The notes under the pieces: generated by a model
Database searches by the model: none
The model's input: the letters and a program-made list of their open reading frames with translations, nothing else
What the model was told of the DNA's origin: nothing
From: Deltaproteobacteria bacterium RIFOXYA12_FULL_61_11
GTDB lineage: Bacteria; Bdellovibrionota_F; JAHFAK01; YA12-FULL-61-11
Direction of reading: 5' to 3'
DNA: 27,953 nt
Assembly (NCBI GenBank): GCA_001799195.1
Contig: MGSU01000300.1
Coordinates: forward strand, 1,445 to 29,397
Shown here: positions 3,844 to 25,292 of the stretch, in pieces
How positions within the stretch are numbered: the first letter of the stretch is position 1
How the letters are laid out: each line of letters begins with the position of its first letter
Position numbers and translations under genes: made by a program

Positions 3844-4926
3844 ATGCCGTGTCCCTCCAAGCTCCGATTCGTCCAGGTCTCGGACGTGGGTCTCGATCGC
3901 AGCTTCGAGCACCTCGGCGGCGGGGAGGTGCTCGGTGAAGCCCTCAGGAAGGAGACCGTGGCGGCCTTCGCTCGTATGGTAGGCTTCTGTACCGCCGCCC
4001 CGCACGACCTCCTCTTGCTCACCGGCTCGCTCGTCGATGCGGAGTTGTCGACCAGGTCGACCCGACTGTTCCTGGATGAACAATTCCTCCGCCTCGGGGA
4101 GGCCGGGCTCGAGGTGGTGCTCGTCCCGGACGGCGAACTGGACCTCCTGCGTGAACGTCCCTTCGTCCATGTTCTCGGACCGGGAGCTCCCGAACTCGTG
4201 CTCGAGCGATGCTGCGCCACCCTCGTCCGGTGGTCTGGTGATTCGACGCCTAACCCTCCTCGGAACGAGGGCTTCCGCTTCCTTCTCGGCAAGCTTCCCG
4301 GAGCGGACCCGGACGAAGCGTCGCTGGCCGGCCTCCACGCTCAGGCCGAGGCCGTGCGTCCCGATTATCTGGCGTTCTGGGGGAGTCCTGCCAAGCTCGA
4401 AGTTCCTCTGCAAGGTGACCGGGTCGCCCGTTGCCCCGGCAGCTTGTGCCAAAGCGTCTTCGACGATCCTTCGACGCACGGGTTCTTCTCGGGGGTCCTT
4501 GCCGGCTCCGGCCTGGTCCTCACCCACCATCTCGGTGGGGGCCTGGGTTTGCACCGGCGCGAGTTGACCCTCGAGCCTACGATGAACGGCGAGGAACTCG
4601 CGTCGGCCTTGGACCGGGTCTTCGAGGATCTGCCTTTACCTGCTGCCCTGCAGGTGCGTCTGACCGGGACGCGCAGTTTCCGCTTGGACCCCCGTCTCAC
4701 CGGCCGGACCCGACCGAGCGGTCTGTACTGGGTGGATGTCTCGGATTGCAGTCGCTATTGCCTTCCGTCGGACCGTCGATCGAGGTTCTTGTTGGACCAT
4801 TATACCCACGCCTTCGAGGTCGAACTCAGCCGCGCGTCGGGTGACGAGGTAGAAGAGCTCGAGAGAGCGCGGGAGCTCGGTCTCGGTCTTCTGCTCGAGG
4901 CCGCGGAGGACGAAGAACACCGATGA
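3844..4926 (+). CDS. SbcD/YhaO-like metallophosphoesterase homologue, catalytic residues lost
   Basis: This 360-residue protein has the shape of the SbcD/Mre11/YhaO nuclease family: an N-terminal FVQVSD strand, DLLLLTGSLVD, a late YLAFWGSPAK, and then a PGSLCQSVF strand like the PGNPQ of YhaO. The metal ligands are nearly all replaced. The D-x-H of motif I is SDVGLD (D14 kept, His gone), GD is GS (61-62), GNHD is PDGE, the following His is Gly in LLGK (147-150), and GHxH is GSPA (180-183). It is therefore probably a structural partner rather than a nuclease. Its stop overlaps the start of the ATPase gene (ATGA at 4923-4926), so the two are translationally coupled. The start is the ATG at 3844. 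The family assignment rests on motif positions and the neighbour. Confidence 0.72.
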   Translation: MPCPSKLRFVQVSDVGLDRSFEHLGGGEVLGEALRKETVAAFARMVGFCTAAPHDLLLLTGSLVDAELSTRSTRLFLDEQFLRLGEAGLEVVLVPDGELDLLRERPFVHVLGPGAPELVLERCCATLVRWSGDSTPNPPRNEGFRFLLGKLPGADPDEASLAGLHAQAEAVRPDYLAFWGSPAKLEVPLQGDRVARCPGSLCQSVFDDPSTHGFFSGVLAGSGLVLTHHLGGGLGLHRRELTLEPTMNGEELASALDRVFEDLPLPAALQVRLTGTRSFRLDPRLTGRTRPSGLYWVDVSDCSRYCLPSDRRSRFLLDHYTHAFEVELSRASGDEVEELERARELGLGLLLEAAEDEEHR

Positions 4927-7900
4927 TGCTGGGACTTCGTTCGATGCATCTGGCCGGTTTCGGCTGTCTGGCCGACCGGCGTTTCCTGTTCGGCGAAGGA
5001 GTGACTATCTTCGTCGGGGCTCCCGGCAGCGGCAAGACCACCCTCCTGGAAGCCATCCGCGCGCTGTTCTATACCTTCGGCTCCACCGGTGGAGCGTTGC
5101 GGGGGGTCGATCCAGCGCAGGCCCGTTTCCGGCCCTTCGACCGACAACTTCCGTATACGGCAGCCTTCGAGATGGTGCGGCAGGGGACGGTCCTGCCGGG
5201 CGAGCGCGATTTCGAGCGAGACCTGTTTCGCGACGCTGCGGGCCAGGCCTTCGAACCGGCCCCGGGCGAGGGTACCGACGGAGTCCCGAGAACGGTCCAC
5301 CAAACGCTATTCCGGCTCGAGGCCGGCCTCGCCGACTTGGAATCGCATCGCTCCGAGTTGTTGGCCTTCCTGACCGGGATCCTGGCCTCCAGCCTCGATC
5401 GGAAGGACCTACGGGTCTGTCTGGAGCGTCTCGGTGAGCTGGAGAGGACTCTGCAACAAGGTAACTACCCCGACCGAGGTTTGTTCGATACGGATCAAGT
5501 CCTCTCTTCCCTCGAGGCGGAAATCGTCGACGGAGAACGGAGGTGGAGGGAGCAGGCCGCTCTCGAACGAGAACTCGGGTTTTGCCGGCAGCGTCTCGGC
5601 GAACTCGAACACGAGAAGGCGATCCTCGGTTCAGCGATCCACCTCGAAGAATACCGCCGTCTGGACGAGACCCTTGGGGCACTCCGGGGCCTCGATCAGC
5701 GCTGGGAGGAACTCCTCGGGCGCGTGGATGTCCCGTACTCGATGCTCCGTGGGTATCCGGAAAGCTTCGAACGCTGCCTCGAAAGCACCGTGCGTCGACA
5801 GGCCTCACTCGTGCGTCTGGAAATCCTGACCACGGAACTCGAAGCGATCGTGGCCGAGCGCGATCGACTCGGCGAGGTCATGTCCGTTTCCCCGTGGCAG
5901 GGCGGCGATCCGGACGACGTGGTCCAGGTCTTGCGCGAGGAAGAGCGCCACCTGGTCGAACTGGAACGCGAGCTGAGCGAGAGCCGCTACCGGCACGAAC
6001 GCGCGCAGGAAGCATTGCTCGCGATCCAACGGTGCCAACGCGAGCTGGAGCGACGTCAGACCGACCTCCTCGATGTCGACGATGTCGATGACGAAGCCCT
6101 CGCCGAGTTGGATTTCGCCCAGCAGTCGGCGCATGAGGCCAAGGCCCACCTGACTCGCACCACGGCTCTGGTTGCGACCTCGGGCGAACGGCTCGAGCGT
6201 TGCGAACGGGAGTTCCTCGACGTCTTCGAGGCTCGGAGAGCGATGGCCGCGGAAGGGCAGCCCGACCCGGCAACCGAGGCCTTACTAAAAAACCTGCGCG
6301 AAGAGTATCGCCGACATGAGGCCGAACTCGTGACCTTGGAGCGCCGTACCGAGGAGGGCGACCGAGCGAGGATGACCCTGGCGGAAGAGCGCCGGCGACT
6401 CGAGGACGAGGTCGAGACCTATGCAGAGCTCGCCGAGGCCACGCTCGACACGGTGGCCGAGTTGCAAGCAGGCCGTGCTGAACTGATCGTGCTCCAGACC
6501 GAGGAGGCGAGTATTCTGACCGCGGAGCAGGAGCTGCAGCTCTCCGAAGCGCGTCTCGACGAGAGGACCAAGGCCCTCGAGCACGGCTTGGACCGTTGGA
6601 AGAGTCGCGAGGAACTCGAACACCACGCTCGCCACGTGAACGAGGATTGGCAAAGCCTCCTGGTTCATCGCGCAAAGCTCGCGACCTCGAGCGGATCAAT
6701 CGAGGAACAACGCCAACGTCGGGCGGCGATCGATACCCGTTTACTCCGATATCCCTTACGCCTGCGGGGGATGGACCGAGAAACCTTCCACCGTCTGAGC
6801 GAATATCACGATCTTGCCCTGTTCCGCAGATTGCAATTGCACGAACGCGTCGAGGAGACGACCGGAGTTCGCACCCGGGAACTCCGTTGGGCGATTGCGG
6901 TTGGTATCCTACTCTCGACCAGCGCTGTCCTCGCTCTGGGTTTTGCCGTGGCGCTCTGGATCCTGTATGCCGGAAACGGAGAAGCGTTCTACTCGTTCTG
7001 GGCCGGTGGAGCCACTGCTTTCTCGGGTCTGTTCCTTGCCCTTCGCCTGCTCCAACACCGGCACGCTCGTCGGGTCAGCGGGGAAACCGAACGCACTCTC
7101 GAAGCCCTCGCGCTCGACGGCCACGAACATCTCCAGTTCGGGTTGCTCATCGAAACTCTCAGGGCCGAGGCCGCTGTCGCCGATTTCGAGACCGTGAAAT
7201 CCCTGTACGAGGAAGGTTTCACTCTCCAACGCGAGCTTGTCGCGATCGACGAGAACCTCAGTGACCTGGTCGTGGACGAGGTCGCCTTGTGTACCCGGAT
7301 CGGAGAGGTCGAGACCCGCCTCCTCGGGTATCTCGAGGTCCTCACACCCGAGGCCTTCCAGCAGTTCGTGATCCGTTGCCGCAATGATCGTCGGGTGTTC
7401 CTCGAGTTGGAAACCCAACGCACCCAACGCGCGGAACTCGCCGCTCGCCGGCACACTCTCGGACAGACTCTCCACGACCTCCGCCGACGTCGGGACGAAC
7501 TCGAGAACCGGCTGGCCAGAATAGGCCTCCTGTACTGCACCGAGACCGGTGCGCCGGGCCAGGGCGACACCGAACGGTTGCGCAAGCGCCTTGAGGATCG
7601 GGATCGCTTGCTCCGACAACTCGCGCTCCACTCCGGGGAAGAAGACGCTGCCGCTCGGGCTTCGGTCTTGCTGGGCCAAGAGATGGAACACCGCCGGGAA
7701 GAACAACGCCGGGTGTTGGGGGAACTCGAGAAGCTCCTCGACGCGTGTTCGGCGCCCTCTGGAGAAACGCTTGGTCGAGCTGAACGAGCCTTGTCGAAGG
7801 CAGTCTCACTGCGTCGAGAGGATGAACGCCTCGAATTGCGGTACGAGGCGCTGCTCTCGGCTCACGTTGCTCTGGCCGAAGCCCGGGTCGAGTTGGTCGC

Positions 7901-9191
7901 CGTGGAAGACCTGCTCCAGCGGCGCCGGTGGGAGGTGCTGTTCAGAACCGGTGATAGCGACGAGGGTTGTGACCTGGAACTCACGGTCACGCGTTTCCGG
8001 TCGCGGGTCCTGGAATACCGAAGGGTATGCGATGACTTGATGCACCTGGTGCCCCGACGAGTCGAAGTCCTTGCCGCGATCGAGAGCGCGAACGAAACCC
8101 TGCATTGTATTGGCCTCCAACTCGATGAGCTGCGCGGCAACCTGCGCCAACGGCTGGGCGAGGATGAGGATCTTCCCTTTGAACATATGTTCGACCGGCT
8201 GCATGCTGAAACAAAGAATTACATTGAGCTGGCAGGCCGACGGGCTCACCTCGAGCAGGAATTACATGAGGTGCGCCGGGCCCATCTCGAGGCGGTACGG
8301 CAGGTCGAAACCGAGACCCGAGAGTTGACCGAGCTGCTGACCGAGGTACCTTCCGAGAAGCCGGTTCTGCCCTTGGAACCCTGCCCGGAACAAGAGGAGA
8401 TCTTGGGTCGGCTCGGTGCGCTCCACGCCGAAAGGACCAAGCTCCTCCAGGGGAGACAGTACCCGGCCCTGGTGCTACGCCACGCCGAATTGACCCGCAC
8501 CGTGGCCTTGCTGCAAGAGAGCCCGAGTTGGAGCGGGGAATCGCAGTTCCAAGACCCGGAAACGGCTCTGGCCGAGGTGGATGCCGATCTCATAGCGACG
8601 AGGAAGCGCTTCCAAGATACCTTGGAGGCCCTGCGGGAATTCGAAATCGCACAGCCTTCGTCGCCGGCCAGGTTGCGAGAACGCCGGGGGGCTCTCCTCT
8701 ATCACCGGCGAGGCCTGGAGCGCCGGATCGAACAGGTGCGCCTGGCGAGGAAACAGTTGCAAGAGAGTCGTTGGACTCTGGCTAATCGGTACGAAGAGAT
8801 GCTGAGTTCGGCGGCCAGCGAGGCTTTGACCGGGCTGTCGAAGAACGTGCGGTATCGCCTCGAGGTCGATCGCCACCTGGGCTTGATGTGGAGGGAGAAC
8901 GGGGCCGACCCGCGTCCCCTGGAATATCTCGGACGCGTCGGCCGGGCCCAGGCCTGGGTCGCTCTGCGCCTGGCTTGCCTACGGCTGGCGACGAACACCG
9001 TGCAGGTATGTCCTCCCGTCTTGCTCGACGATCCGTTTTCAGGCTGGGACGATGAACGAGCCCTCGCCGGACTCGAGGCCTTCGCTTCGCTCGCCGACCG
9101 CGTGCAAGTGGTCCTGGCGACCTCGGATGAAACCCTGGTGCGGGCTTTCTTGCGCGGCCATCCCGGTGGGGTGGTGCAGCACCTGCTCTGA
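4923..9191 (+). CDS. SbcC/YhaN-like AAA ATPase with coiled coils and central membrane segments
   Basis: This is a 1422-residue ABC/SMC-type ATPase of the SbcC/Rad50/YhaN group. Walker A GAPGSGKTT is at residues 32-40. The Walker B region VLLDDPFSGWDDERA is at about 1366-1380, preceded by LGRVGRAQAWVALRLA in the place of the ABC signature, where the usual Ser-x-Gly core is not obvious. Between the two halves lie about 1200 residues of Glu/Arg/Leu-rich heptad-like coiled coil. They are broken at about 655-715 by two hydrophobic segments (WAIAVGILLSTSAVLALGFA and ATAFSGLFLALRLL) instead of a zinc hook. This suggests an ATPase clamped to the membrane, as in YhaN-type relatives. It likely works with the upstream pseudo-phosphoesterase on DNA ends or at the envelope; the role is inferred. 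Confidence 0.85.
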   Translation: MMLGLRSMHLAGFGCLADRRFLFGEGVTIFVGAPGSGKTTLLEAIRALFYTFGSTGGALRGVDPAQARFRPFDRQLPYTAAFEMVRQGTVLPGERDFERDLFRDAAGQAFEPAPGEGTDGVPRTVHQTLFRLEAGLADLESHRSELLAFLTGILASSLDRKDLRVCLERLGELERTLQQGNYPDRGLFDTDQVLSSLEAEIVDGERRWREQAALERELGFCRQRLGELEHEKAILGSAIHLEEYRRLDETLGALRGLDQRWEELLGRVDVPYSMLRGYPESFERCLESTVRRQASLVRLEILTTELEAIVAERDRLGEVMSVSPWQGGDPDDVVQVLREEERHLVELERELSESRYRHERAQEALLAIQRCQRELERRQTDLLDVDDVDDEALAELDFAQQSAHEAKAHLTRTTALVATSGERLERCEREFLDVFEARRAMAAEGQPDPATEALLKNLREEYRRHEAELVTLERRTEEGDRARMTLAEERRRLEDEVETYAELAEATLDTVAELQAGRAELIVLQTEEASILTAEQELQLSEARLDERTKALEHGLDRWKSREELEHHARHVNEDWQSLLVHRAKLATSSGSIEEQRQRRAAIDTRLLRYPLRLRGMDRETFHRLSEYHDLALFRRLQLHERVEETTGVRTRELRWAIAVGILLSTSAVLALGFAVALWILYAGNGEAFYSFWAGGATAFSGLFLALRLLQHRHARRVSGETERTLEALALDGHEHLQFGLLIETLRAEAAVADFETVKSLYEEGFTLQRELVAIDENLSDLVVDEVALCTRIGEVETRLLGYLEVLTPEAFQQFVIRCRNDRRVFLELETQRTQRAELAARRHTLGQTLHDLRRRRDELENRLARIGLLYCTETGAPGQGDTERLRKRLEDRDRLLRQLALHSGEEDAAARASVLLGQEMEHRREEQRRVLGELEKLLDACSAPSGETLGRAERALSKAVSLRREDERLELRYEALLSAHVALAEARVELVAVEDLLQRRRWEVLFRTGDSDEGCDLELTVTRFRSRVLEYRRVCDDLMHLVPRRVEVLAAIESANETLHCIGLQLDELRGNLRQRLGEDEDLPFEHMFDRLHAETKNYIELAGRRAHLEQELHEVRRAHLEAVRQVETETRELTELLTEVPSEKPVLPLEPCPEQEEILGRLGALHAERTKLLQGRQYPALVLRHAELTRTVALLQESPSWSGESQFQDPETALAEVDADLIATRKRFQDTLEALREFEIAQPSSPARLRERRGALLYHRRGLERRIEQVRLARKQLQESRWTLANRYEEMLSSAASEALTGLSKNVRYRLEVDRHLGLMWRENGADPRPLEYLGRVGRAQAWVALRLACLRLATNTVQVCPPVLLDDPFSGWDDERALAGLEAFASLADRVQVVLATSDETLVRAFLRGHPGGVVQHLL

Positions 9192-9206: not shown

Positions 9207-10247
9207 TCAGCGACCGGCGGTCTTCGTTCCAACAGTGGCGAGTTGGCCGCAGGCCGCGGCGATATCCGCGCCGCGACGTTTGCGCACGTTCACCTGGAGT
9301 CCGCGTTCGGCGAGCGCTTCGAAAAAGGCCTGTACGCGGTCTTCCGTCGGGGCGGAGAGGCCTTCGATCCCGTTCTCGTTGTATGGGATGAGGTTGACCT
9401 TTGCCGGGATGCCGTGGAGCAGGGTCACCAGCTCGCGGGCATGCTTGGGCTCGTCGTTGAGGCCAGCGAAGAGAATGTATTCGATAGTGAAGCGCCGGCG
9501 TTTGGGCAAAGGAAACGAGCGCAGGGCCTCGAGAAGCACGGCGAGAGGGTAAGTGCGATTGACGGGCATCAACCACCCGCGCAGGTCATCGCGGGTGGCG
9601 TTGAGCGAGACCGCGATGCCGATGGTGGGTCTCTCCAGCAGGCGGTCGAGTTTCGGAACCAGGCCGGCGGTCGAGACCGTGGTGCGCCGGGGGGATTGCG
9701 CCAGGCCTCGATCGTCGCCGAGGATGGCCAGGGCGGCGAGCAGGTGGTCGTCGTTGTCCAGGGGCTCCCCCATACCCATGAAGACCACGTTGGTGACGTT
9801 CTCCTTGTCGCCGAACATGCGCCGGGCGAGTACGACTTGAGCCACGATCTCCGAGGTGCCGAGGTGGCGTACGAAGCCCATCTTACCGGTACGGCAGAAG
9901 CGGCAGCCGAGCTTGCAGCCGACCTGGGTGGAGACGCACAGGGTCGCTCGGTGGAGTTCGGGTATGTGCACGGTCTCGACTTTGCGGCCGTCCTGGAGTT
10001 CGATCAGCAGCTTGACTGTCCCGTCGATAGAGGTTTGGAGGTCGGCCACGGATGGGAGCTCGAGGCTGAAGACAGCGGCGAGCCGGTTCCGGTTGGATAG
10101 GCTGATGTTGGTCATGTCGGCGAAAGAGTTGGCGTGCTTGCGATAGACCCAATCGAAGACCTGGTCGGCGACATAGCGGTGGAAGTCCCCCAACTCATCG
10201 AGGTGCCGGTGCAGCTCCTCGCGGGAGAGCGAGAAGAGGTCAAGCAT
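9207..10247 (-). CDS. rlmN: Dual-specificity RNA methyltransferase RlmN
   Basis: This radical SAM enzyme methylates C2 of A2503 in 23S rRNA and of A37 in some tRNAs. The 346 residues contain the cluster motif CKLGCRFC at 111-118, GMGEPLDN for SAM contact, and the two extra cysteines used in the mechanism: C104 in ATLCVSTQVG and C333 in AAACGQL near the C terminus. Residue 119 is Arg where most relatives have Ala (FCRTGK, usually FCATGK). The ATG at 10247 is chosen over the longer open frame because it starts the family-like MLDLFSLSREEL and overlaps the previous gene's stop by 8 bases. It is the last gene of the overlapping channel cluster and converges on the ATPase gene with a 15-base gap. 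Confidence 0.96.
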   Translation of the reverse strand: MLDLFSLSREELHRHLDELGDFHRYVADQVFDWVYRKHANSFADMTNISLSNRNRLAAVFSLELPSVADLQTSIDGTVKLLIELQDGRKVETVHIPELHRATLCVSTQVGCKLGCRFCRTGKMGFVRHLGTSEIVAQVVLARRMFGDKENVTNVVFMGMGEPLDNDDHLLAALAILGDDRGLAQSPRRTTVSTAGLVPKLDRLLERPTIGIAVSLNATRDDLRGWLMPVNRTYPLAVLLEALRSFPLPKRRRFTIEYILFAGLNDEPKHARELVTLLHGIPAKVNLIPYNENGIEGLSAPTEDRVQAFFEALAERGLQVNVRKRRGADIAAACGQLATVGTKTAGR

Positions 10248-11142
10248 GGCAATACCTGGCGACGAGGGCCGCGAGGCGTTCGCCGCGGAGCTTGTCCAGG
10301 GTGCGTATAGAGTCACCTTTTAATGCAAATAGTTTCTTGTACCGAAGCGGGCGGTGTGGCCCCAGGGTGGACCGCAACACGGCCTCGACCGTTTCGAGAG
10401 CGAGCTCGAGTAATTCGGTCCTGCCTGCGCGTTCGGGATGGTTGCGCATTCTGAGGAAACGGTTCTTGAGAGGGGCTTGATAGCATTCTGCCGGATAACG
10501 CGCGGAGAGGCGGTCCAGACGTTCGAGACGGTGCTCTTCGAGGCTCTTGCCCGTATCTTTGATGTCTTCGAAGGATGCAGCGATCCAGCCGTCGAGGAGG
10601 ATGCGGTGAGGCAGGGTCGGTTGGAGACGCCGCAGGGCGATGAGCAAACGCAGGACTTTGAAGCGGAGGAGGTCGAACCCGTGTTCCTCGAGCAATTCCG
10701 GGAAGTGGTGACCGAGATGGGCCTCGATGCGGGAGCGACTGGCTTCCAACGCGTGCTCGACGGTGCAGCGGCTCTCCTGCCGGTGAACCGACCGCGACAG
10801 CTCTCGCAGTCGTCCGTCCAGGCTCGGGGTCTCGGGTGCCTGGACGGCCAGTTCATTGAGGACTCGCTGGCAAGCGTTGAGCCTTTCGTCGCGGAAACCT
10901 TCACGGTCCAGACGCTCGATCACCGCGCGGAGCTGTTGGAGTCGTCCTTGGATCTGGACTGCGAGGGCGACCTCGCGATGCAGAGCGGCCAGGGGTTTGA
11001 GCAGGACCGTGGCCGCGGTGCCACGCAGAGTCTTTCGATCCGAGACCAGCCGGGAATACCGTTCGCGCAGCGAAGGAGCCAGATCGGGATTGGCCTCGAG
11101 CCAGGTCGACAGATCGGAGAGGAGGAGGTCGACGGTCCTCAT
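10240..11142 (-). CDS. Helical protein of unknown function in MotA/MotB-like operon
   Basis: This 300-residue protein is not recognised. It is rich in Leu, Arg and Glu, lacks a signal peptide or membrane segment, and looks almost entirely alpha-helical, so a cytoplasmic location is expected. Notable stretches are LRFKVLRLLIALRRLQPTL and a C-terminal basic segment LRYKKLFALKGDSIRTLDK. The ATG at 11142 overlaps the stop of the MotB-like gene by four bases (ATGA), and its own stop overlaps rlmN by eight. An open frame extends upstream to 11319 but runs through the neighbouring gene. By position it is the third component of the channel cluster, the place where Zorya systems carry a helical ZorC, but I see no sequence motif shared with ZorC. 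Confidence 0.75.
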   Translation of the reverse strand: MRTVDLLLSDLSTWLEANPDLAPSLRERYSRLVSDRKTLRGTAATVLLKPLAALHREVALAVQIQGRLQQLRAVIERLDREGFRDERLNACQRVLNELAVQAPETPSLDGRLRELSRSVHRQESRCTVEHALEASRSRIEAHLGHHFPELLEEHGFDLLRFKVLRLLIALRRLQPTLPHRILLDGWIAASFEDIKDTGKSLEEHRLERLDRLSARYPAECYQAPLKNRFLRMRNHPERAGRTELLELALETVEAVLRSTLGPHRPLRYKKLFALKGDSIRTLDKLRGERLAALVARYCHA

Positions 11143-11876
11143 GGCTGGTCCATCCTCGAAGCAAGGACCAACTCGATCCGTCCGGCGCGGGGGGGAGCGA
11201 GGGTTAGGGCGAGCGAGGGCGGTGAAGCGCTTTCGCGGGTCAAGAGCTTGGCCAGGCGTCGGAGCAAGTCTTCGGCCTCGGTCAAGGGGCTGAGCGGACA
11301 GGGGGTCGCCGGCGGGCACTGGTCCGCGCTCGGGTCTGCCGGAGCGGCCACCGGGGGAGAGTCGGCGCTGACCTCGTTCTCGGGAAGCGGCTGCACGGAG
11401 AGTCCCCAGGACAGGTTGTCGCCGCTCGAGGCGGCCATGGCCTTGACCAGCTCGCGCAAGAGGAAAACCCCTTTCGCGCTCGGACCGCTCGGGCCGAGGA
11501 AATAGGCATCGGCGAGGACCAGGCGTTCGCAGGCGTCGGCACCCCGCTGGTACCAGAGATCGGGGGTACCATCGCCGTCGTAATCAAAACCGCCGGAGGA
11601 CGCATCGTAGGCGGTGCGCAAGGTTGTCACGACCAAGTCTCGCAGGGGAGTAAGCTCCTGCGGTTCTGCCGTGGCGCTACTGTCGGCGCTCGGTTCCCCG
11701 GGCGCTTCGCTCGGATCGGCGCTGGGGTCCCCGAGGAACTCGGGTTCACCGGAAGGAGCAGGAACTCGAGTAGTGTTCTCGCTCTTGTCGACGAGGGAAA
11801 AGACGATGGCCAGGAGGAAGAGCAGTAGGGCAAGCTCGAAGGCCAGTGGGGGCAGGTGACGCATGGCCGGCCTCAT
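11139..11876 (-). CDS. MotB/ZorB-like membrane-anchored protein (tentative)
   Basis: The 245 residues start with one membrane helix (about 9-29, PPLAFELALLLFLLAIVF) with an acidic residue, E14, near its start. MotB, ExbD and ZorB have their proton-carrying Asp at this place. A Pro/Ser/Glu-rich linker (35-75) follows, then an Asp-rich loop FDYDGDGTPDLW (97-108) that could bind calcium. The C-terminal domain begins RLVLADAYFLGPSGPSAKG and ends in GRIELVL, which could be a degenerate OmpA-like peptidoglycan-binding fold, but its TD and NxxLSxxRA hallmarks are absent. ATGA overlaps on both sides couple it to the channel gene and to the helical gene. Assignment rests on topology and gene order. 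Confidence 0.6.
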   Translation of the reverse strand: MRPAMRHLPPLAFELALLLFLLAIVFSLVDKSENTTRVPAPSGEPEFLGDPSADPSEAPGEPSADSSATAEPQELTPLRDLVVTTLRTAYDASSGGFDYDGDGTPDLWYQRGADACERLVLADAYFLGPSGPSAKGVFLLRELVKAMAASSGDNLSWGLSVQPLPENEVSADSPPVAAPADPSADQCPPATPCPLSPLTEAEDLLRRLAKLLTRESASPPSLALTLAPPRAGRIELVLASRMDQP

Positions 11877-13099
11877 TCGATCGGAGTGGTCAGCTTAGGG
11901 GAATCTTCCTCGAGCACCTCGTCTTCGGCGTCGATCAAGGGGGTGGGGCGTCCCGAGGGCGAGCGGCGGCGGCCCTCGTTCTCGCGGCGGGGGAGGCTCT
12001 CTTTGGGGAGTGGAGGCGTGGAAGCCTCGGCCATGATTTTTACGGCTCTCTTGACCTCGCCGAGCACCACATCCTCGCGTTTGAGGAATTCCTCGATCAG
12101 GTCGACCCGGGCGGTCTCATTTTTGGTCAGCTCTTCGCGGAGATCGAGCAGCAATTTGTTCTGGGCTTCGAGGTGTTCGTAGAGTTCCTCGACCCTGGCA
12201 TTGAAGTGGTGGTGGTTCTCGAAGATCTTCTCGTCGATGGCGAAGAAGCGTTCCAGGACCTCGTTGACGTCATCCTTGTAGGCCAAGAGGCGCTCGGTGC
12301 CTTTCTCGAAGGCATCGACGAAGATGGTCAGTTTCTCCTGCTCGACTTGCACGTTCTTGGAAGCATTGTGCAGGAGTTCGGCCGCCGCGACCGAATCGCG
12401 GGCCGCTTGTTCGAGTTTGCCCGAGGCTTGCCTGAGCAAATCGAAGAGGTCCTCGCTCCAGGCGAAGAGGCGATTGACTTCTTCGTGGGTGGTGTCGCGC
12501 AGGTAGCGAGGCAGGAGCTCGTGTTGGATCAGACCGTCGAACTCGCGGCGATTGCCGGTCGCAATGCTGTCCCGGAATGCCCGGAAGGGAGCCAGGACAA
12601 GCAAGCCGGCCACGGCCCAACCGAGGCTGGAGAGGGCGCCGAGCAGGGCGGAGCCTGTCTCGAGATCTCCTCCGGTTTTCGCAGAGAGCGCGGTGAAGAG
12701 GTTGAAGCAAGCGCCGAGAAGACCGGCGGCCATGATGGCGCGGGTAAGCAGTTCCAGCCCAGGGGCCTGGTCACTCAAGGCCAACGGGAGGTTCGTGCTC
12801 GAGGGTGTGTTCTTCCCCCGGAGTAGGCCGAGCCGGTGGAGTTGTTCCAGGGTGGTCGCGAGCAGGTTGTCTTTGCCGACCAAAGACCTGGCTTCATCAT
12901 GGTATTCCTGGAGGCTGCGATTCAGGGGGATGGTGCGGAGCAGCTCTCCTCGGGCGAGGATCTTGCGTTCTCCGAGGCCGGTCATGACCTGGACGAGCGC
13001 GAGCAGCACCCCGACCAGGGTGAAGGCGGCGATGAGGACGACGGGGATGAACACCGCCAAGTCGCTGCCCGGCAGTAGGAAGGTGACCAACTGATCCAT
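11873..13099 (-). CDS. MotA/TolQ/ExbB-like channel protein with coiled-coil tail
   Basis: The 408 residues have ExbB-like topology: membrane helix 1 at about 13-40, a cytoplasmic stretch at 41-115, helix 2 at about 118-139 (IMAAGLLGACFNLFTALS), a short loop, helix 3 at about 151-172 (ALLGALSSLGWAVAGLLVLA), then about 235 cytoplasmic residues. That tail is charged and heptad-like (KLEQAARDSVAAAELLHNAS...) and ends in a basic/acidic disordered region. The GLLG and Gly-rich helix pair are typical of the proton-channel superfamily, and the long coiled-coil tail is what distinguishes ZorA from MotA and ExbB. The ATG at 13099 has GGAGG eight bases upstream; an ATG two codons earlier is too close to it. 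The stop overlaps the MotB-like gene. A close homologue cannot be named. Confidence 0.7.
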   Translation of the reverse strand: MDQLVTFLLPGSDLAVFIPVVLIAAFTLVGVLLALVQVMTGLGERKILARGELLRTIPLNRSLQEYHDEARSLVGKDNLLATTLEQLHRLGLLRGKNTPSSTNLPLALSDQAPGLELLTRAIMAAGLLGACFNLFTALSAKTGGDLETGSALLGALSSLGWAVAGLLVLAPFRAFRDSIATGNRREFDGLIQHELLPRYLRDTTHEEVNRLFAWSEDLFDLLRQASGKLEQAARDSVAAAELLHNASKNVQVEQEKLTIFVDAFEKGTERLLAYKDDVNEVLERFFAIDEKIFENHHHFNARVEELYEHLEAQNKLLLDLREELTKNETARVDLIEEFLKREDVVLGEVKRAVKIMAEASTPPLPKESLPRRENEGRRRSPSGRPTPLIDAEDEVLEEDSPKLTTPIE

Positions 13100-13160
13100 G
13101 CCCATTTCCTCCAGGGGGATCGATGTGTGACGCCTCGATCGGGGTCGAGAGCGGGAGGGG

Positions 13161-13240: not shown

Positions 13241-14119
13241 TCACTCTGCTTTCGGGGCATCTTGCGCGGCGGGCCGGATTTCGACCGAACAGTGTCCGGG
13301 ACGTTGGTAGCGGTCGGTCTTGAGCTTGACGTCGCAAGGATTGCACAGACCGTGCTTGTCGCAGGGGCGGAAGACGTCTGTCAGGCCCAGTTCCGGGTCG
13401 AGGATGGAACCGATCGGTTGGAAGGCGTTGTAGAGGTCGTGGTGACAGCGAAAAATGTTGCCGCTCGGGTCGATCAGCAATTCCGAGGTCCTGCAGGTGA
13501 CGGGAACACCACTAGGCTTCCCCAGGCAGGCTTCGGGATAGCGATAGGTCCCGTGGATTGCCCCCTGGTAGGGACCGAGCAACTCTTTGATTCTAAAGTC
13601 TATGCCCTCGGATGCGAAGACCCGTGCGGCTTCATCGAGAAGGGTTGGGGCGTCGGGTAGACGGACCGAATAGAGACCGAGGTCGAAGCCCGCATCGCGC
13701 AGTCGGCGGACTTTGGCGGTAAGGGTGCGGAGTTCGTCGTGGCGGGGGTGGTAGCTGATTCTGATCGGTGCGTAGGGGCCGGTTCGTCGGAAACGGGTCG
13801 GATCGACGCGGTCGAGGAAGGGAGCGAGGTCGAAGGTCAAAGAGGTCAGGAGGTCGATCTTGTACTCGGCTGGAAGGTCCTCGAGCAGGGTGCAGAAACC
13901 CGGATGTCGACCCGGATCTCCTCCTTGGAGGGTGATGGGTAGATCATGCAGTTGCACACGCTTGAAGAAGGTGAGCCATTCCGCGGCGCCAAGTTGCGGT
14001 CTCGGTTTGAAGGAATAGCGATTGATCTGGTTGATGCAGTAACTGCAGCACAAGCCGCAGGCGAAGGTGAGGAAAACCCCGAAATAATTGTAACGAGGTG
14101 GGAGGAGGACCGGGTTCAT
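13241..14119 (-). CDS. Radical SAM protein with SPASM-like C-terminal cysteines
   Basis: The 292 residues contain the radical SAM cluster motif C-x3-C-x2-C at C21, C25 and C28 (CGLCCSYC), and LQGGDPGRHPGF in place of the usual GGEP strand. The C-terminal third holds seven further cysteines (198, 209, 225, 253, 259, 262, 277), including RCHHDLYNAFQPIGS and CDKHGLCNPC. This is the spacing of a SPASM or twitch domain that binds an auxiliary iron-sulfur cluster. Such enzymes often modify peptides or assist maturation. No small precursor peptide is evident nearby, so the substrate is unknown. The ATG at 14119 has no strong ribosome site. It sits 94 bases after the HD-GYP gene in the same direction. 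Confidence 0.85.
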   Translation of the reverse strand: MNPVLLPPRYNYFGVFLTFACGLCCSYCINQINRYSFKPRPQLGAAEWLTFFKRVQLHDLPITLQGGDPGRHPGFCTLLEDLPAEYKIDLLTSLTFDLAPFLDRVDPTRFRRTGPYAPIRISYHPRHDELRTLTAKVRRLRDAGFDLGLYSVRLPDAPTLLDEAARVFASEGIDFRIKELLGPYQGAIHGTYRYPEACLGKPSGVPVTCRTSELLIDPSGNIFRCHHDLYNAFQPIGSILDPELGLTDVFRPCDKHGLCNPCDVKLKTDRYQRPGHCSVEIRPAAQDAPKAE

Positions 14120-17477: not shown

Positions 17478-19982
17478 TCACTGGTTAGTCACGGCCGGGT
17501 CGCCGGTGACGGTGTCGGGAAGGGGTTCGGGCATCAGCCCGATGTCGAAGCACTTCCAGGAGATCGGACAGCCCTTCTCGTCGAACCCGGCAACCACCTT
17601 CTGACCGCCGACGCAGGTCGTCGTCGAACGCAATCCGTCGAAGGCGCAGGTCTTGGGCGCGCACCTGGGGGGTTTGGGACAGATCATATTGCTGTCGGCG
17701 GTCTGCATGAAGAAGTCCTTCACGAGGACCTGTTCCGCGGTGCAGACAGGAAAATACTCGGGTATGCCTGGGCACGTCTCGGGCCGCACGCAGGTGGGGG
17801 GTAGCGGACATCCGTCCTCACCGGTACTCTGTAAGATCTTGCCGTCGAGACAGAAATCCGGACGCAGGTCGTAGTCGTACATCGGGCAGATCTTGGGTCT
17901 GCACACCGGGGGCAGCGGACAACCGATTTCGTCGTACCCACCGGAGGTGATGGTACCGTCGATACACCATTCGGAGGAAACCGCCATATCGGCCGTGCCT
18001 ACCGAGGTGCCGGTGATGAGATCTCCGTCAGGAGTCCTGACGTAGATGGGACATTCCTTGGGTTTGCAGACCGGGGGCAGCGGACAACCGCGATCGTCAT
18101 AACCGCCGAAGACCATGTTGCCGTCCGGGCAATAGACCATCATGGCATCATTGCCGGCTTCGGAGGAGGTTGCCATATCCGCATATTGCGGACATTCGTA
18201 CGGTTTGCAGCGCGGGGGCAGCGGGCAGCCGTTCTGGTCGAAGCCGCCGGAGATGATCTCGCCGTTCTCGCAGACCGGCATGGCCATGGTGTACATGGGG
18301 CAGATCTTGGGTTTGCAGACCGGGGGCAGCGGACAACCGTTCTGGTCGAAGCCGCCCGGGACTATCTCGCCGTCCTTGCACACGGGCATGACCGTGGGGT
18401 ATGCGGGGCAGATCCGCGGCTTGCAGACAGGGGGTAGCGGACAACCGCGTTCGTCGTAACCACCCGGGACCAGCTCTCCGTCCGGACAAGCGGGTTCCAT
18501 GATCCGGTCGGCGATTTCATCGCGCAGGACTCCGCCCAGGGCTGGGCCGGCATCCGTGGCGTTGGGAACCGCGGTGCGGTAGACAGGGCAGTCGACCGGT
18601 TGGCAGCGCGGCGGCAGCGGACAGCCGTTGGGGTCGAAACCGCCGGTGATGATGGCCCCGTCTTCACAACGCGGCATCACGTCGGGGTACATCGGGCACT
18701 GTTTGGGTTTGCAGGTCGGGGGCAAGGGGCAACCGCGGTCGTCGAAACCACCCGACACCGGGGTTCCGTCTGGGCAGAAGTTGTCCCAGTAAACCGGCAT
18801 GAGGTCGGCTTGGGCCGAGGAGGTAGTGATTTTCTCTTGGAGAGCGGTACCGCCGAGGATGTCGCGGTAGACCGGACAGTCTTTCGGCTGGCAGCGTGGC
18901 GGGAGCGGACAACCGTTCTGGTCGAAACCGCCGGAGATGATCCTGCCGTCCGGACAATTCGGCATCACCATGGTGTACATGGGGCATTCTTTGGGTTGGC
19001 AGACGGGAGGCATCGGACAACCGTCGGGGCCGATCGAGCCTGTGGTCCAATACCCCTCACACTTCTCGCGCACGAAATTCTCGTCCGCATTGCTGCTGAG
19101 GGTCCAACACTGTTTTGGTCTGCAGACCGGGGGCAAGGGGCAGCCCTCGGGGCCGAAACCGCCGTGGACGATGAGACCATCGATGCAGTATTTCTCCGGC
19201 ATGTCGAAATCGTAGGCAGGGCAGGTCTTCGGGCGGCAGATTGGAGGCATCGGGCAGCCGAGGTCGTCGAATCCACCGATGGTGATCTCGCCGCCTTCAC
19301 AGGTGGTCACACGTTCGCTCTGGAAGGTCGGGCAGGCCTTGGGCACGCAGCGCGGCGGCAACGGGCATCCGGCTTGATCGACCCCACCGGTCTGGATGAT
19401 ACCCATGGGACAGAATTCTTGGGTGATCTTAGGGTAGACCGGACAGGACTTCTTGTGACAGAGCGGGGGCATGGGGCAGCGCCGGTCGTCGAAGCCGCCG
19501 GGCATCCAGAACCCGCTCTCGCAAACCTGGGTCTCGGCGAAGGCATAGGCCGGACAATCCTTGGGCACGCAGAGCTTCGGCATGGGACACCAGTTCGAAT
19601 CGAAACCGCCGTGGATGAAGCGGCCGTCGGCGCACTCGGTCTCGGTGGTCTCCTGTAGGACCGGACAATCCACGGCTATCCCGCCCTGACTGTCGATGAA
19701 GATCTTGCGGGCCAGTTCGTGGACGTCGCTCATGTCGATCTTACCGTCGTTGTTGAGATCTTCGAGACCGGCTTCCTCGAGTTCGTTGGCGTCGGAACCC
19801 TGTTGAGCCATGCTGAAGAACTTGAGCACGTCGGCATTGTCGAGTTCGCCGTTACCGTCGACGTCGCCGACCACCTGTTGGACTTCTGCGCTGTCGGCGA
19901 GCTGGTCAATGAAGCTCTGACAGCCGAACATGGAGCCGAATACTGTCAAGAAGAACCCGATAAGTAAGACAGTGCGAAGCAT
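17478..19982 (-). CDS. Secreted Cys-rich protein with 17 repeats and a dockerin-like pair
   Basis: The 834 residues begin with a signal peptide ending MFGC (C21), a plausible though imperfect lipobox. Residues 40-95 hold two calcium-loop segments, DVDGNGELDNADVLKF and DLNNDGKIDMSDVHEL, arranged as in type I dockerins. From residue 106 to about 815 there are 17 repeats, mostly 36-40 residues and up to about 60. Each normally has four cysteines in the pattern CP...C-x-G...GGFD-x-x-GCPLPP-x-C-x-PK. Long inserts occur in repeats 8, 10, 13 and 14. The even cysteine count suggests disulfides formed outside the cytoplasm. The ATG at 19982 follows GGGAGGAAGCT, an excellent ribosome site; the frame further upstream is spurious. 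I know no function for this repeat; a surface or structural role is a guess. Confidence 0.9.
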   Translation of the reverse strand: MLRTVLLIGFFLTVFGSMFGCQSFIDQLADSAEVQQVVGDVDGNGELDNADVLKFFSMAQQGSDANELEEAGLEDLNNDGKIDMSDVHELARKIFIDSQGGIAVDCPVLQETTETECADGRFIHGGFDSNWCPMPKLCVPKDCPAYAFAETQVCESGFWMPGGFDDRRCPMPPLCHKKSCPVYPKITQEFCPMGIIQTGGVDQAGCPLPPRCVPKACPTFQSERVTTCEGGEITIGGFDDLGCPMPPICRPKTCPAYDFDMPEKYCIDGLIVHGGFGPEGCPLPPVCRPKQCWTLSSNADENFVREKCEGYWTTGSIGPDGCPMPPVCQPKECPMYTMVMPNCPDGRIISGGFDQNGCPLPPRCQPKDCPVYRDILGGTALQEKITTSSAQADLMPVYWDNFCPDGTPVSGGFDDRGCPLPPTCKPKQCPMYPDVMPRCEDGAIITGGFDPNGCPLPPRCQPVDCPVYRTAVPNATDAGPALGGVLRDEIADRIMEPACPDGELVPGGYDERGCPLPPVCKPRICPAYPTVMPVCKDGEIVPGGFDQNGCPLPPVCKPKICPMYTMAMPVCENGEIISGGFDQNGCPLPPRCKPYECPQYADMATSSEAGNDAMMVYCPDGNMVFGGYDDRGCPLPPVCKPKECPIYVRTPDGDLITGTSVGTADMAVSSEWCIDGTITSGGYDEIGCPLPPVCRPKICPMYDYDLRPDFCLDGKILQSTGEDGCPLPPTCVRPETCPGIPEYFPVCTAEQVLVKDFFMQTADSNMICPKPPRCAPKTCAFDGLRSTTTCVGGQKVVAGFDEKGCPISWKCFDIGLMPEPLPDTVTGDPAVTNQ
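17538..19667 (-). repeat. Array of 17 coding Cys-rich repeats
   Basis: This tandem array lies within the Cys-rich gene. The repeated DNA core encodes GCPLPP-x-C-(K/R/Q)-PK, seen on the plus strand as the recurring GGGGGCAGCGGACAACC-type block about every 110-180 bases. Repeats near the middle (7, 9, 11, 12) are the most alike, while the first and last ones have diverged, as expected for growth from the interior. The spacing is uneven and the units are translated, so this is not a CRISPR array. Confidence 0.88.
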
Positions 19983-20082
19983 AGCTTCCTCCCTCGAGGC
20001 AAGTACGTGGTCGCCCACGCTGATCTCAGATCGAGCCGTACGGTGTCTTCGCGGTAGTTGCGACTTGGCCACGATCGGGCGA

Positions 20083-20111
20083 AGAATACCCCTCCCTGCA
20101 AGGGAATGCAA
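20083..20111 (-). promoter_or_regulatory. Possible promoter of the Cys-rich repeat gene
   Basis: On the minus strand, TTGCAT (20106-20111) and TATTCT (20083-20088, four of six consensus bases) are 17 bases apart, in the divergent spacer 19983-20213. The implied leader is about 95 bases long and ends in the strong GGGAGGA ribosome site. Confidence 0.35.
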
Positions 20112-20120
20112 CTGCAAAGG

Positions 20121-20149
20121 TTGCCTTTCCCGCCGATCCATGCTATGGA
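20121..20149 (+). promoter_or_regulatory. Possible promoter of the MshEN-tadA-tRNA unit
   Basis: TTGCCT (20121-20126) and TATGGA (20144-20149) are separated by 17 bases, about 60 bases upstream of the MshEN gene. The match is moderate at best. It lies back to back with the candidate promoter for the Cys-rich gene. Confidence 0.28.
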
Positions 20150-20213
20150 CTCGACCGAACTCATGGAGAGGACTTTCTCGGTCCTGACGATGAGCTCGAC
20201 AACGTAGGGGGGG

Positions 20214-20690
20214 ATGATGACGAAACGCAAACGCTGGAAACTCGGAGAACTGCTGCTCAGACTTGGACTGATCGATGCCGAACAGCTCAATGCCGGGCTG
20301 ACCTACCAGAAGCTCGAGCGTGCGCACGACGAGGATGCGCCTCTAGGAGAATTCTTCACCAAGCATCGCATCGTATCACCCAAGGTAGTATCGACCCTGC
20401 TGGCCTATCAAGAAAAACATGCCGAAAAGAAAGAATACAAGATCAGTGGATTAGATGACCAGAGGGTTCTTGGGGCCATCGATTCCCTCACCGCCCGGCA
20501 GCATGGGATCTTCCCGATCGTACTCAAGGAAAGCCCTGAGGAAGCCTGGCTCTACCTGGCGATGCGCGATCCTGAGGATCGTTCCCTGATAGAGGACATC
20601 GAATTCCGTTCCGGCTATTTCGTCAAACCGGTGAAAGCCGATGACGAATCCCTAACCCGGGCCATCGAACGGTATTATCCCAGCAACTGA
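20214..20690 (+). CDS. Stand-alone MshEN (type II secretion E N-terminal) domain protein
   Basis: The 158 residues match the N-terminal domain of GspE/PilB/MshE ATPases: KLGELLLRLGLIDAEQLNAG, then a second LGEFF...IVSPKVVSTLLAYQ unit, and a C-terminal half with HGIFPIVLKE, LYLAMRDPEDRSLIEDIEF and VKPVKADDESLTRAIERYY. MshEN domains of this type can bind cyclic di-GMP. No ATPase domain follows, so this is a single-domain version, possibly an adaptor or second-messenger sensor. An HD-GYP protein is encoded nearby, but a link is only inference. Two ATGs in a row (20214, 20217) follow a G-rich ribosome site; the second has better spacing. It ends 21 bases before tadA, suggesting cotranscription. 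Confidence 0.8.
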   Translation: MMTKRKRWKLGELLLRLGLIDAEQLNAGLTYQKLERAHDEDAPLGEFFTKHRIVSPKVVSTLLAYQEKHAEKKEYKISGLDDQRVLGAIDSLTARQHGIFPIVLKESPEEAWLYLAMRDPEDRSLIEDIEFRSGYFVKPVKADDESLTRAIERYYPSN

Positions 20691-23043: not shown

Positions 23044-25257
23044 CTATTGGGCGCTGAGGTACTTCTCAACGCGGTTGGCGGCGTTGGTGCGCAGGTTGAA
23101 GTAGTAGAAGGGGATGTCGTACGAGTGGTACACGCCAGGGCCGAAGCCAAGGATCAGGTTGCTGTCCACTGCCGTGCTGCACACGACCACACCCTTGGAT
23201 TTGTCCACGCGGGCGTCCGCGTATTGGGGCACCTGGGAGAATACGCCGCCCTTGCCCGGCATGTACGAGCCAAGTCCCTCTTCTGTGGTGGCGGTGGTCT
23301 CGTCCAGGGTCCAGGAAATGGGGTTGATGGCGATGGCTCCGGGCAACAGGAAGGGCGCTTGGGACAGGTCAACCCCGGGGGCAAGGGTGTTGTAGGAGAT
23401 GATCACGCCCGTGTCGTCAGGGCCCTGGGCAAAGTGCAGGTGGGGATTGGCCGCCAGAAAGTCACTCGTAATCGAGTAACCGATGATATAGGCGGCCACC
23501 ATGCGCTTGAGGTACTCTGGATGGGTTTTGAAGTAGCCGGCTAGTAACAGTTTCAGCACATTGGCGCCCTGGGAGTGACCCAGCAGCAGGAACGGCCTAC
23601 CGTCGTTGTAGTGCTGGAAGTAGTAGTCCAGGGCAGCCTCGGCATCTGCAGCCGGGACACTGGCGATAAACGCGTCCCGCTGGTCGGGGGGCAGCGAGAG
23701 GCTGTAGACCCCTTCCCCCTGACGATAGTAGGGGGCGTAGACATTGCCGACGGTCTCGAAGGCCGTGGCTTGCCGGGCGTAGGCGGAAGCGGAACCAGCA
23801 AGCATGGAGGCGTTGTCGATGGGGCATATATTGGGCTCGGAGTCGTCCAGTTTGCGCCAGGCGGTGGGGTATAGGTAGAAGACATCCACTGCCTTGTTGG
23901 TGGCCTGGGGCAGGTGCAGCCAATGAGCCGCCAGGGAGTAATCGGTGAGGGCCCCACCTGCGGTATCCCCCAGGCGAAGCGAGTCGGCAGCCAGTTCCTC
24001 CATTCGGCCTTTGTTCATCCGGTAGAGCCTGACGTCGGTCTGCGAGTCAGCGGCGGAACCCTGGGGGTTGATGACGACGAAGTTCAGGTTGCTGCTGTTG
24101 GGGTTGTGGTCGATCCATGTGCCCGAGTTTGCGTAGATGGTTTTCAGGCCAGCGTGGTTTTCGCCCGCAATGATCCGCGGCTCGTGGGTGTGCCCGAAGA
24201 CGACAATACGAACCGGGGAGGCCGGGTTCTGGAAGTACTGTGTCTCTGCCTGCTTGTCGGTGCCTGACGCCTTCGCCGCGTCGGTCAGGGCCTGCATGAT
24301 CGGGATGTGGGCCGCTACGCGGTTGATGGTCTGGCGCTGGTCCCATGTATCCAGCGAGGTTCTAAACAGATTCATGTCAATGGGGCCTCCCGGGGCCTCT
24401 TGGAAGGGCGGGACGTCGTTGATGGCATAGGTCTTGGTGAAACCGTCAAGGTTGGTGACGATGATCTTTTCGGCGAAGGTATTCTCCACCGGGTACTTCT
24501 CGAGCAATGTCTTCCAAATGCCCCAGTACACATAGGCCAGTTGCTGTGCGGGGTTAAGGGTCACCTCAGGAATGGTGTCACCCGCGGTCTCGCAGCCCTG
24601 CAGCACGTGCAGCACGGCGATGCGGGTGAAGAAGTAGCCCGGAGGCATGATGGAACCTGGTGCCACGGCGGCGTTGGACAGGGGATCCGGCGCGCAGAAG
24701 AAGTTGTAGCGGTGGCCGTGCTCGATGGCTATCTCGGGGTGATCCTGGGGGCTGTAGGTGCCCAGGCCAAGCTGGTCGTCACGGGCCTGGTTGATGCCCG
24801 ATAGGATGCTGTCCACATTCGCTGCGGTGATGGTTAGGTCGTGGTTGCCTGGCACATAGGTCACCCGGATTGTGCCGTCCTGGATGATGTTGTTGAAGGC
24901 GCCGATGACTTCAGGGTTCGCTGCAGCGATACGCTTGACGAAGTCGGCCTGGTCCTTCCCCGCGTAGGTATCGGTGGTGGCCGGCACGAACCACTCATCC
25001 AGCAGGTCACCGGCAATGACCAACTCGCGCACAGTGGGCGACTGCCGGACCGTCTGCAGGAACTCGGCAAGGGCGGGAAGATTGTCATGGCACTCGGCGT
25101 AAGCCAGGTCGGCCCCGAGATGGAGGTCACTGATGACCACAATTTGGGTGCGGGCGTCGGCGCCGGTGTTCAGGGGACCAAGAGCGTTCTCTTTGGTTCC
25201 ACATGACACCATCAGCAAGAAGGCCAGGAAAAGGGTTACAGCCTGCAACTTGTGCAT
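23044..25257 (-). CDS. Phosphoesterase-DUF3089 fusion lipoprotein
   Basis: The 737 residues begin with a signal peptide and lipobox LMVSC (C19). Residues about 38-400 form a calcineurin-like metallophosphoesterase with every motif intact: SDLHLG (D44, H46), GD at 83-84, GNHD at 137-140, EHGH at 179-182 and GHTH near 370. Residues about 430-737 form an alpha/beta hydrolase of the DUF3089 type, opening with AVDVFYLYPTAW and holding the nucleophile elbow GHSQG (S562). One secreted, lipid-anchored chain thus joins a metal-dependent phosphoesterase with a probable esterase; phospholipid or nucleotide breakdown is conceivable but unproven. The ATG at 25257 follows GGAGGA by seven bases. Possible IS21-type end sequence lies just upstream. 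Confidence 0.88.
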   Translation of the reverse strand: MHKLQAVTLFLAFLLMVSCGTKENALGPLNTGADARTQIVVISDLHLGADLAYAECHDNLPALAEFLQTVRQSPTVRELVIAGDLLDEWFVPATTDTYAGKDQADFVKRIAAANPEVIGAFNNIIQDGTIRVTYVPGNHDLTITAANVDSILSGINQARDDQLGLGTYSPQDHPEIAIEHGHRYNFFCAPDPLSNAAVAPGSIMPPGYFFTRIAVLHVLQGCETAGDTIPEVTLNPAQQLAYVYWGIWKTLLEKYPVENTFAEKIIVTNLDGFTKTYAINDVPPFQEAPGGPIDMNLFRTSLDTWDQRQTINRVAAHIPIMQALTDAAKASGTDKQAETQYFQNPASPVRIVVFGHTHEPRIIAGENHAGLKTIYANSGTWIDHNPNSSNLNFVVINPQGSAADSQTDVRLYRMNKGRMEELAADSLRLGDTAGGALTDYSLAAHWLHLPQATNKAVDVFYLYPTAWRKLDDSEPNICPIDNASMLAGSASAYARQATAFETVGNVYAPYYRQGEGVYSLSLPPDQRDAFIASVPAADAEAALDYYFQHYNDGRPFLLLGHSQGANVLKLLLAGYFKTHPEYLKRMVAAYIIGYSITSDFLAANPHLHFAQGPDDTGVIISYNTLAPGVDLSQAPFLLPGAIAINPISWTLDETTATTEEGLGSYMPGKGGVFSQVPQYADARVDKSKGVVVCSTAVDSNLILGFGPGVYHSYDIPFYYFNLRTNAANRVEKYLSAQ

Positions 25258-25292
25258 GGGCGCGTCCTCCAAGAGGTTCGATGCCCCCAATG

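What the first reader, a model, noticed from the sequence alone, without database searches (positions are those of the whole stretch)
9207..13099. ZorAB-like channel cassette with an unknown helical third gene, coupled to rlmN
Seen: three overlapping genes encode a three-helix ExbB-topology protein with a long cytoplasmic coiled-coil tail, a partner with one membrane helix carrying an acidic residue, and a soluble helical protein. Their overlaps (ATGA, ATGA, 8 bases) continue into rlmN. Established knowledge: Zorya anti-phage systems use ZorA (MotA-like with coiled-coil tail) plus ZorB (MotB-like) and cytoplasmic effectors. Inference: this may be a divergent ion-driven system with a new effector, for defence or for envelope mechanics.
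Basis: partly seen in the sequence, partly recalled or inferred. Interest (0 to 1): 0.68.

Follow-up and report, generated by a model that had tools for sequence, protein, structure and literature searches.

The report
Orphan membrane-motor-like gene trio beside rlmN
Three overlapping genes of a poorly sampled bacterium encode two membrane proteins laid out like a proton-driven motor plus a helical partner, but none has a detectable relative anywhere I searched, so the motor reading is plausible but unproven and nothing links it to phage defence.

Summary
The anatomy is as described: A (11873-13099, -), B (11139-11876, -), C (10240-11142, -) and rlmN (9207-10247, -) overlap by 4, 4 and 8 bases, and codon statistics support all of them as genes. 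A has ExbB/TolQ-like topology: N-out, three membrane helices, short TM2-TM3 loop, and a long cytoplasmic tail with heptad periodicity (3.52 residues, 0/300 shuffles). B has one N-terminal membrane helix with a glutamate near its cytoplasmic end, as ExbD/MotB have an aspartate. C is soluble and helical. Membership is not shown. A misses PF01618, and profile tests give only marginal support (about p 0.01-0.08). B shows no statistical OmpA signal. C matches no Zorya effector model and no fold. No homologue of A, B or C turned up in 386 genomes of many families, in pattern scans of about 85,000 species (A and C), or in plasmids. The one same-class genome lacks the trio, also next to its rlmN. No defence system was recognised nearby. 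Best reading: a very divergent, lineage-restricted ion-driven motor (5:2 type) with a cytoplasmic partner and an envelope role. A non-conducting membrane scaffold is a serious rival. Zorya-like defence is unlikely.

The parts
11873..13099 (-). gene A, 408 aa: N-out, three membrane helices (about 14-40, 114-141, 146-172), cytoplasmic heptad tail about 182-360, charged C-terminus predicted without structure
   Evidence: no family match above cut-off
13107..13111 (-). Shine-Dalgarno GGAGG upstream of the A start codon (approximate coordinates)
   Evidence: sequence CCCTGGAGGAAATGGGCATG
11139..11876 (-). gene B, 245 aa: N-in single membrane helix (about 8-29) with Glu14, acidic Pro/Ser/Ala linker 30-75, extracytoplasmic domain 76-245
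   Evidence: no family match; no OmpA signal
10240..11142 (-). gene C, 300 aa, soluble, basic, all-helical
   Evidence: no family above cut-off (weak HrpB1_HrpK 17.2 vs 29.3 bits)
9207..10247 (-). rlmN, overlaps C by 8 bases
   Evidence: RlmN_N and Radical_SAM domains

Best explanation
A and B form a membrane complex of the ion-driven 5:2 kind: a ring of A around a dimer of B, whose membrane glutamate (E14) is protonated and released as ions pass, turning A against B. The bundled coiled-coil tails of A reach into the cytoplasm and hand the motion or a conformational signal to C, made by the next coupled gene. B's outer domain contacts the cell envelope. The likely job is a lineage-specific envelope or housekeeping role, not phage defence. 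Shown: gene order, overlaps, topology from charge and hydropathy, heptad tail, Glu in the membrane helix. Inferred: complex formation, 5:2 stoichiometry, ion flow, contact of the tail with C, envelope role.
For: Charge pattern puts A N-out with a 73-residue cytoplasmic TM1-TM2 loop and a short acidic TM2-TM3 loop, and puts B N-in/C-out: the ExbB/ExbD arrangement. The A tail has a hydrophobic period of 3.52, 0/300 shuffles. TM2 'GLLGACFNLFTALS' lines up with 'GLLGTxxGLxxxLs' of 11 MotA/ExbB/ZorA proteins; score 5.5 bits against a maximum of 3.2 in 121 windows of three unrelated transporters; 9/1000 local shuffles reach the A61-200 score. ATGA overlaps fit partner subunits. GldLM shows that a 5:2 motor can lack obvious sequence homology with MotAB (PMC9389320).
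Against: A is not recognised by PF01618. 150/2000 hydrophobicity-preserving shuffles reach its score, A1-200 by profile comparison is exceeded by 3 of 100 shuffles, and A1-200 by HMM by 318 of 1000. The family Thr of TM2 is Ala in A. B has Glu, not Asp, and no statistical OmpA/MotB similarity. The structure model of A is too poor to judge and its fold search found nothing.
Confidence: 0.45

Rival explanations
1. A, B and C form a non-conducting membrane-anchored scaffold: A is a membrane protein with a coiled-coil stalk, B a bitopic envelope anchor, C a cytoplasmic adaptor. No ion flow.
For: No statistically convincing link of A to PF01618 or of B to OmpA/ExbD; many membrane proteins have stalks; charged residues at the membrane edge are common (general knowledge).
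Against: The combined topology of the two proteins, the GLLG motif in TM2 and the placement of Glu14 near the cytoplasmic side of the only B helix are what a 5:2 motor would need.
Confidence: 0.35
2. C is unrelated to A and B and belongs with rlmN (for example an RNA- or ribosome-associated helper); only A-B form a unit.
For: C is basic (52 K+R, 41 D+E), soluble, and overlaps rlmN by 8 bases.
Against: C also overlaps B by ATGA; no RNA-binding family match.
Confidence: 0.14
3. A divergent Zorya-like anti-phage system with C as a new effector.
For: A has a motor-like head and a long cytoplasmic coiled-coil tail as ZorA does, followed by a possible motor partner and a cytoplasmic gene.
Against: The ZorA profile matches only the coil (E 0.0043). 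B shows no peptidoglycan-binding OmpA signal. C hits no ZorC/D/E/F/G model. No defence system recognised in the window; the trio is coupled to a housekeeping gene; no homologue in viral contigs or plasmids.
Confidence: 0.06

Closest known systems
ExbB-ExbD / TolQ-TolR (MotA_ExbB superfamily, PF01618)
   Same: Three-helix N-out head, short TM2-TM3 loop, GLLG motif in TM2; partner with one N-terminal helix with an acidic residue near the cytoplasmic side; adjacent overlapping genes
   Different: No significant profile match; Glu instead of Asp; Thr of TM2 absent; long coiled tail on A; no TonB/TolA-like gene beside it
Zorya ZorA-ZorB (PMC11890865)
   Same: Motor-like head with elongated cytoplasmic coiled-coil tail, partner gene next, then a cytoplasmic gene
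   Different: Tail about 180 residues (the ZorA I tail deletion covers residues 237-696); no ZorB/OmpA signal; no ZorC/D/E/F/G; not in a recognised defence setting
Generic ion transporters of Puente-Lelievre et al. (PMC12505986)
   Same: A subunits with varied C-terminal extensions and compact B periplasmic domains without OmpA homology
   Different: Those were collected by sequence homology; A and B are not found by it
GldL-GldM
   Same: A 5:2 motor with no obvious sequence homology to MotAB (PMC9389320)
   Different: GldM has four periplasmic domains (PMC9389320); GldL has fewer membrane helices and no such long coiled tail (own knowledge, not tested here)

Membership tests
MotA/TolQ/ExbB superfamily (PF01618) | profile match over the curated cut-off | tested here: not met
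   no match at E up to 1 (full protein) or up to 10 (TM2-TM3 part); the locus is absent from the 11 PF01618 hits of its genome
MotA/TolQ/ExbB superfamily (PF01618) | N-out topology with three helices and cytoplasmic tail | tested here: met
   hydropathy and charge only
MotA/TolQ/ExbB superfamily (PF01618) | TM2 GxxGT motif and polar Ser/Thr in TM3 | tested here: inconclusive
   GLLGA present, Thr missing; Ser157-Ser158 in TM3; 150/2000 class-preserving shuffles score as well
5:2 ion-driven motor | A5B2 assembly around a membrane acidic residue of B | not testable with these tools
   no multimer prediction available; Glu14 present in B
5:2 ion-driven motor | conserved aspartate in the B helix (PMC9389320, PMC11890865) | tested here: not met
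   the residue is Glu14; no Asp inside the helix
MotB/ZorB type partner | OmpA-like peptidoglycan-binding domain | tested here: inconclusive
   no Pfam match; profile score reached by 213/1000 shuffles; by eye an OmpA-like strand-helix pattern, not significant; no structure model made
Zorya | ZorA profile over head and tail | tested here: not met
   PDLC00601 E 0.0043, only residues 212-341 of the query, in the tail
Zorya | a known cytoplasmic component (ZorC, D, E, F or G) | tested here: not met
   C: only LmuB at E 0.016
Zorya | anti-phage activity | not testable with these tools
   needs phage challenge

The most novel reading that the evidence does not exclude
A sequence-isolated class of ion-driven 5:2 motor, with glutamate as the proton site and a coiled-coil tail feeding force to a dedicated cytoplasmic protein, diverged within one rare bacterial lineage.
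Probability: 0.25. Interest if true: 0.65.

Novelty: new variant of a known kind. Interest (0 to 1): 0.33.

Why it matters
If A-B is a motor, the known spread of ion-driven 5:2 machines, now counted by sequence similarity, is an underestimate, and this would be a further case besides Zorya of such a motor sending its output into the cytoplasm. If not, it is one more lineage-specific orphan operon.

Tried and rejected
Homologue searches all came back empty or spurious. A in 98, then 386 genomes: of the weak hits, those overlapping TM2-TM3 that I read were a tape-measure protein, a glycosyltransferase, acyl-CoA dehydrogenases, a RelA-like protein and antisense-type frames; the remaining ones cover mostly the coiled tail and were not all read. 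A in 77 genomes of the phylum of G006. B and C in 386 genomes: the best C hits are an antisense-type frame and an acyl-CoA dehydrogenase; the B hits (E 0.004-0.02, short, half of them interrupted by stops) were not read one by one. Pattern scans of genome contigs with A and C and viral contigs with A and C use exact 8-residue stretches and reach only close relatives. A, B, C against plasmids and C against phages by tblastn: none. PDB by sequence: none. The fold search with the A model (pLDDT 45) gave only generic helical matches. For C (residues 1-126 mostly pLDDT 70-89, most of the rest under 60) Foldseek found nothing below E 2 and the second aligner at most Z 8.0, mostly designed helical bundles, which for helical bundles carries no weight. 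A phylum search around G048 returned a single genome. Synteny: rlmN of the only same-class genome lies next to parA/parB-like genes, without the trio.

Full report
Observation. On the minus strand four genes run A (11873-13099), B (11139-11876), C (10240-11142), rlmN (9207-10247), overlapping by 4, 4 and 8 bases. Codon scores favour these frames over all others, including the long antisense ORFs; B is the weakest. Upstream lies a radical-SAM-like gene (13241-14119), 141 bases from the start of A. Downstream, a convergent ATPase gene ends 15 bases from the end of rlmN.

Anatomy. A has three hydrophobic helices and a tail. Its loop charges place the N-terminus and the short TM2-TM3 loop outside and the TM1-TM2 loop and tail inside. 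The tail has a hydrophobic period of 3.52 residues, which no shuffle out of 300 matches. B has a positively charged N-terminus, one helix with Glu14 about a quarter of the way in, an acidic Pro/Ser/Ala-rich linker and an outer domain of about 170 residues. C has no membrane helix; a single-sequence model shows helices throughout, with fair confidence only for its N-terminal part.

Is A a MotA/ExbB protein? By topology yes, by sequence not shown. PF01618 does not match A at E 1, nor its core at E 10, while it finds 11 other loci in the same genome. I built profiles from 11 MotA/ExbB/ZorA-type proteins from the fetched loci. The core of A scores 5.5 bits, above all 121 windows of three unrelated transporters (maximum 3.2), but 150 of 2000 shuffles that keep the hydrophobic pattern do as well. 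Other versions of the test gave 9 of 1000 local shuffles for residues 61-200 but 318 of 1000 for residues 1-200, and 3 of 100 with profile-profile comparison. The aligned core is the TM2 stretch GLLGACFNLFTALS. I read this as suggestive only.

Is B a MotB/ZorB protein? The helix fits by position of the acid, but the residue is Glu and no statistical similarity to OmpA-type domains exists: 213 of 1000 shuffles score at least as high. By eye I can lay the outer domain over the OmpA pattern (strand, helix, strand, helix, strand), but this did not survive the test and I do not claim it.

Is C a Zorya effector? No PADLOC model of ZorC to ZorG matched; the only Pfam hit is HrpB1_HrpK at 17.2 bits against a cut-off of 29.3, over 42 residues. 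No fold could be named.

Distribution. The genome (G000, 4.64 Mb, 87% complete) has one same-class relative among those held and none closer. That relative lacks A, B and C at the thresholds used and its rlmN has other neighbours. No homologue was found in 386 genomes, nor in the exact-pattern scans of 84,980 species, which reach only close relatives. The trio is therefore an orphan at present, and neither joint conservation nor selection on particular residues could be tested.

Setting. The window holds secA, a tadA-like deaminase, an NhaC-type antiporter, a response regulator with an HD domain, secreted Cys-rich and TSP3 proteins. No defence system was recognised; the ATPase at 4923-9191 has LmuB-like similarity, as SMC/Rad50-type ATPases tend to. 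The own genome has no ZorA match at 1e-6.

Mechanism. The most economical reading is an ion-driven A5B2 machine whose tails act on C. Known features of such motors: the B aspartate packs against Ser/Thr of the A ring, and the ZorA tail is needed for defence (PMC11890865). GldLM shows that sequence homology may be invisible (PMC9389320), and non-flagellar relatives vary widely in tails and periplasmic parts (PMC12505986). Ion flow, stoichiometry and contact with C are inferences. A scaffold without ion flow remains nearly as likely.

Verdict. Interest is moderate because a sequence-isolated motor would be notable, but the evidence cannot tell it from an ordinary orphan membrane operon.

Noticed in passing
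window 3844-4926 (+) with 4923-9191 (+): An SbcD/YhaO-like phosphoesterase that has lost its metal ligands (DVH to DVG, GD to GS, GNHD to PDGE-type, against a Mesorhizobium relative, 34% identity over 124 columns) overlaps a 1422-aa SbcC/YhaN-like ATPase gene with apparently intact Walker motifs: a nuclease subunit turned pseudoenzyme.
   Followed up: partly
window 13241-14119 (-): Radical-SAM-like protein (Cys cluster CGLCCSYC) with no Pfam match and only weak PqqE/ScmE-type similarity, just upstream of gene A.
   Followed up: no
window 17478-20327 (-): Probably secreted protein made of many Cys-rich repeats of the form CPxY...CPDGxxxxGGFDxxGCPLPPxCxPK behind a dockerin-like calcium motif.
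   Followed up: no
window 23044-25290 (-): Fusion of a calcineurin-like phosphoesterase with a DUF3089 domain in one protein with a lipoprotein-like N-terminus.
   Followed up: no
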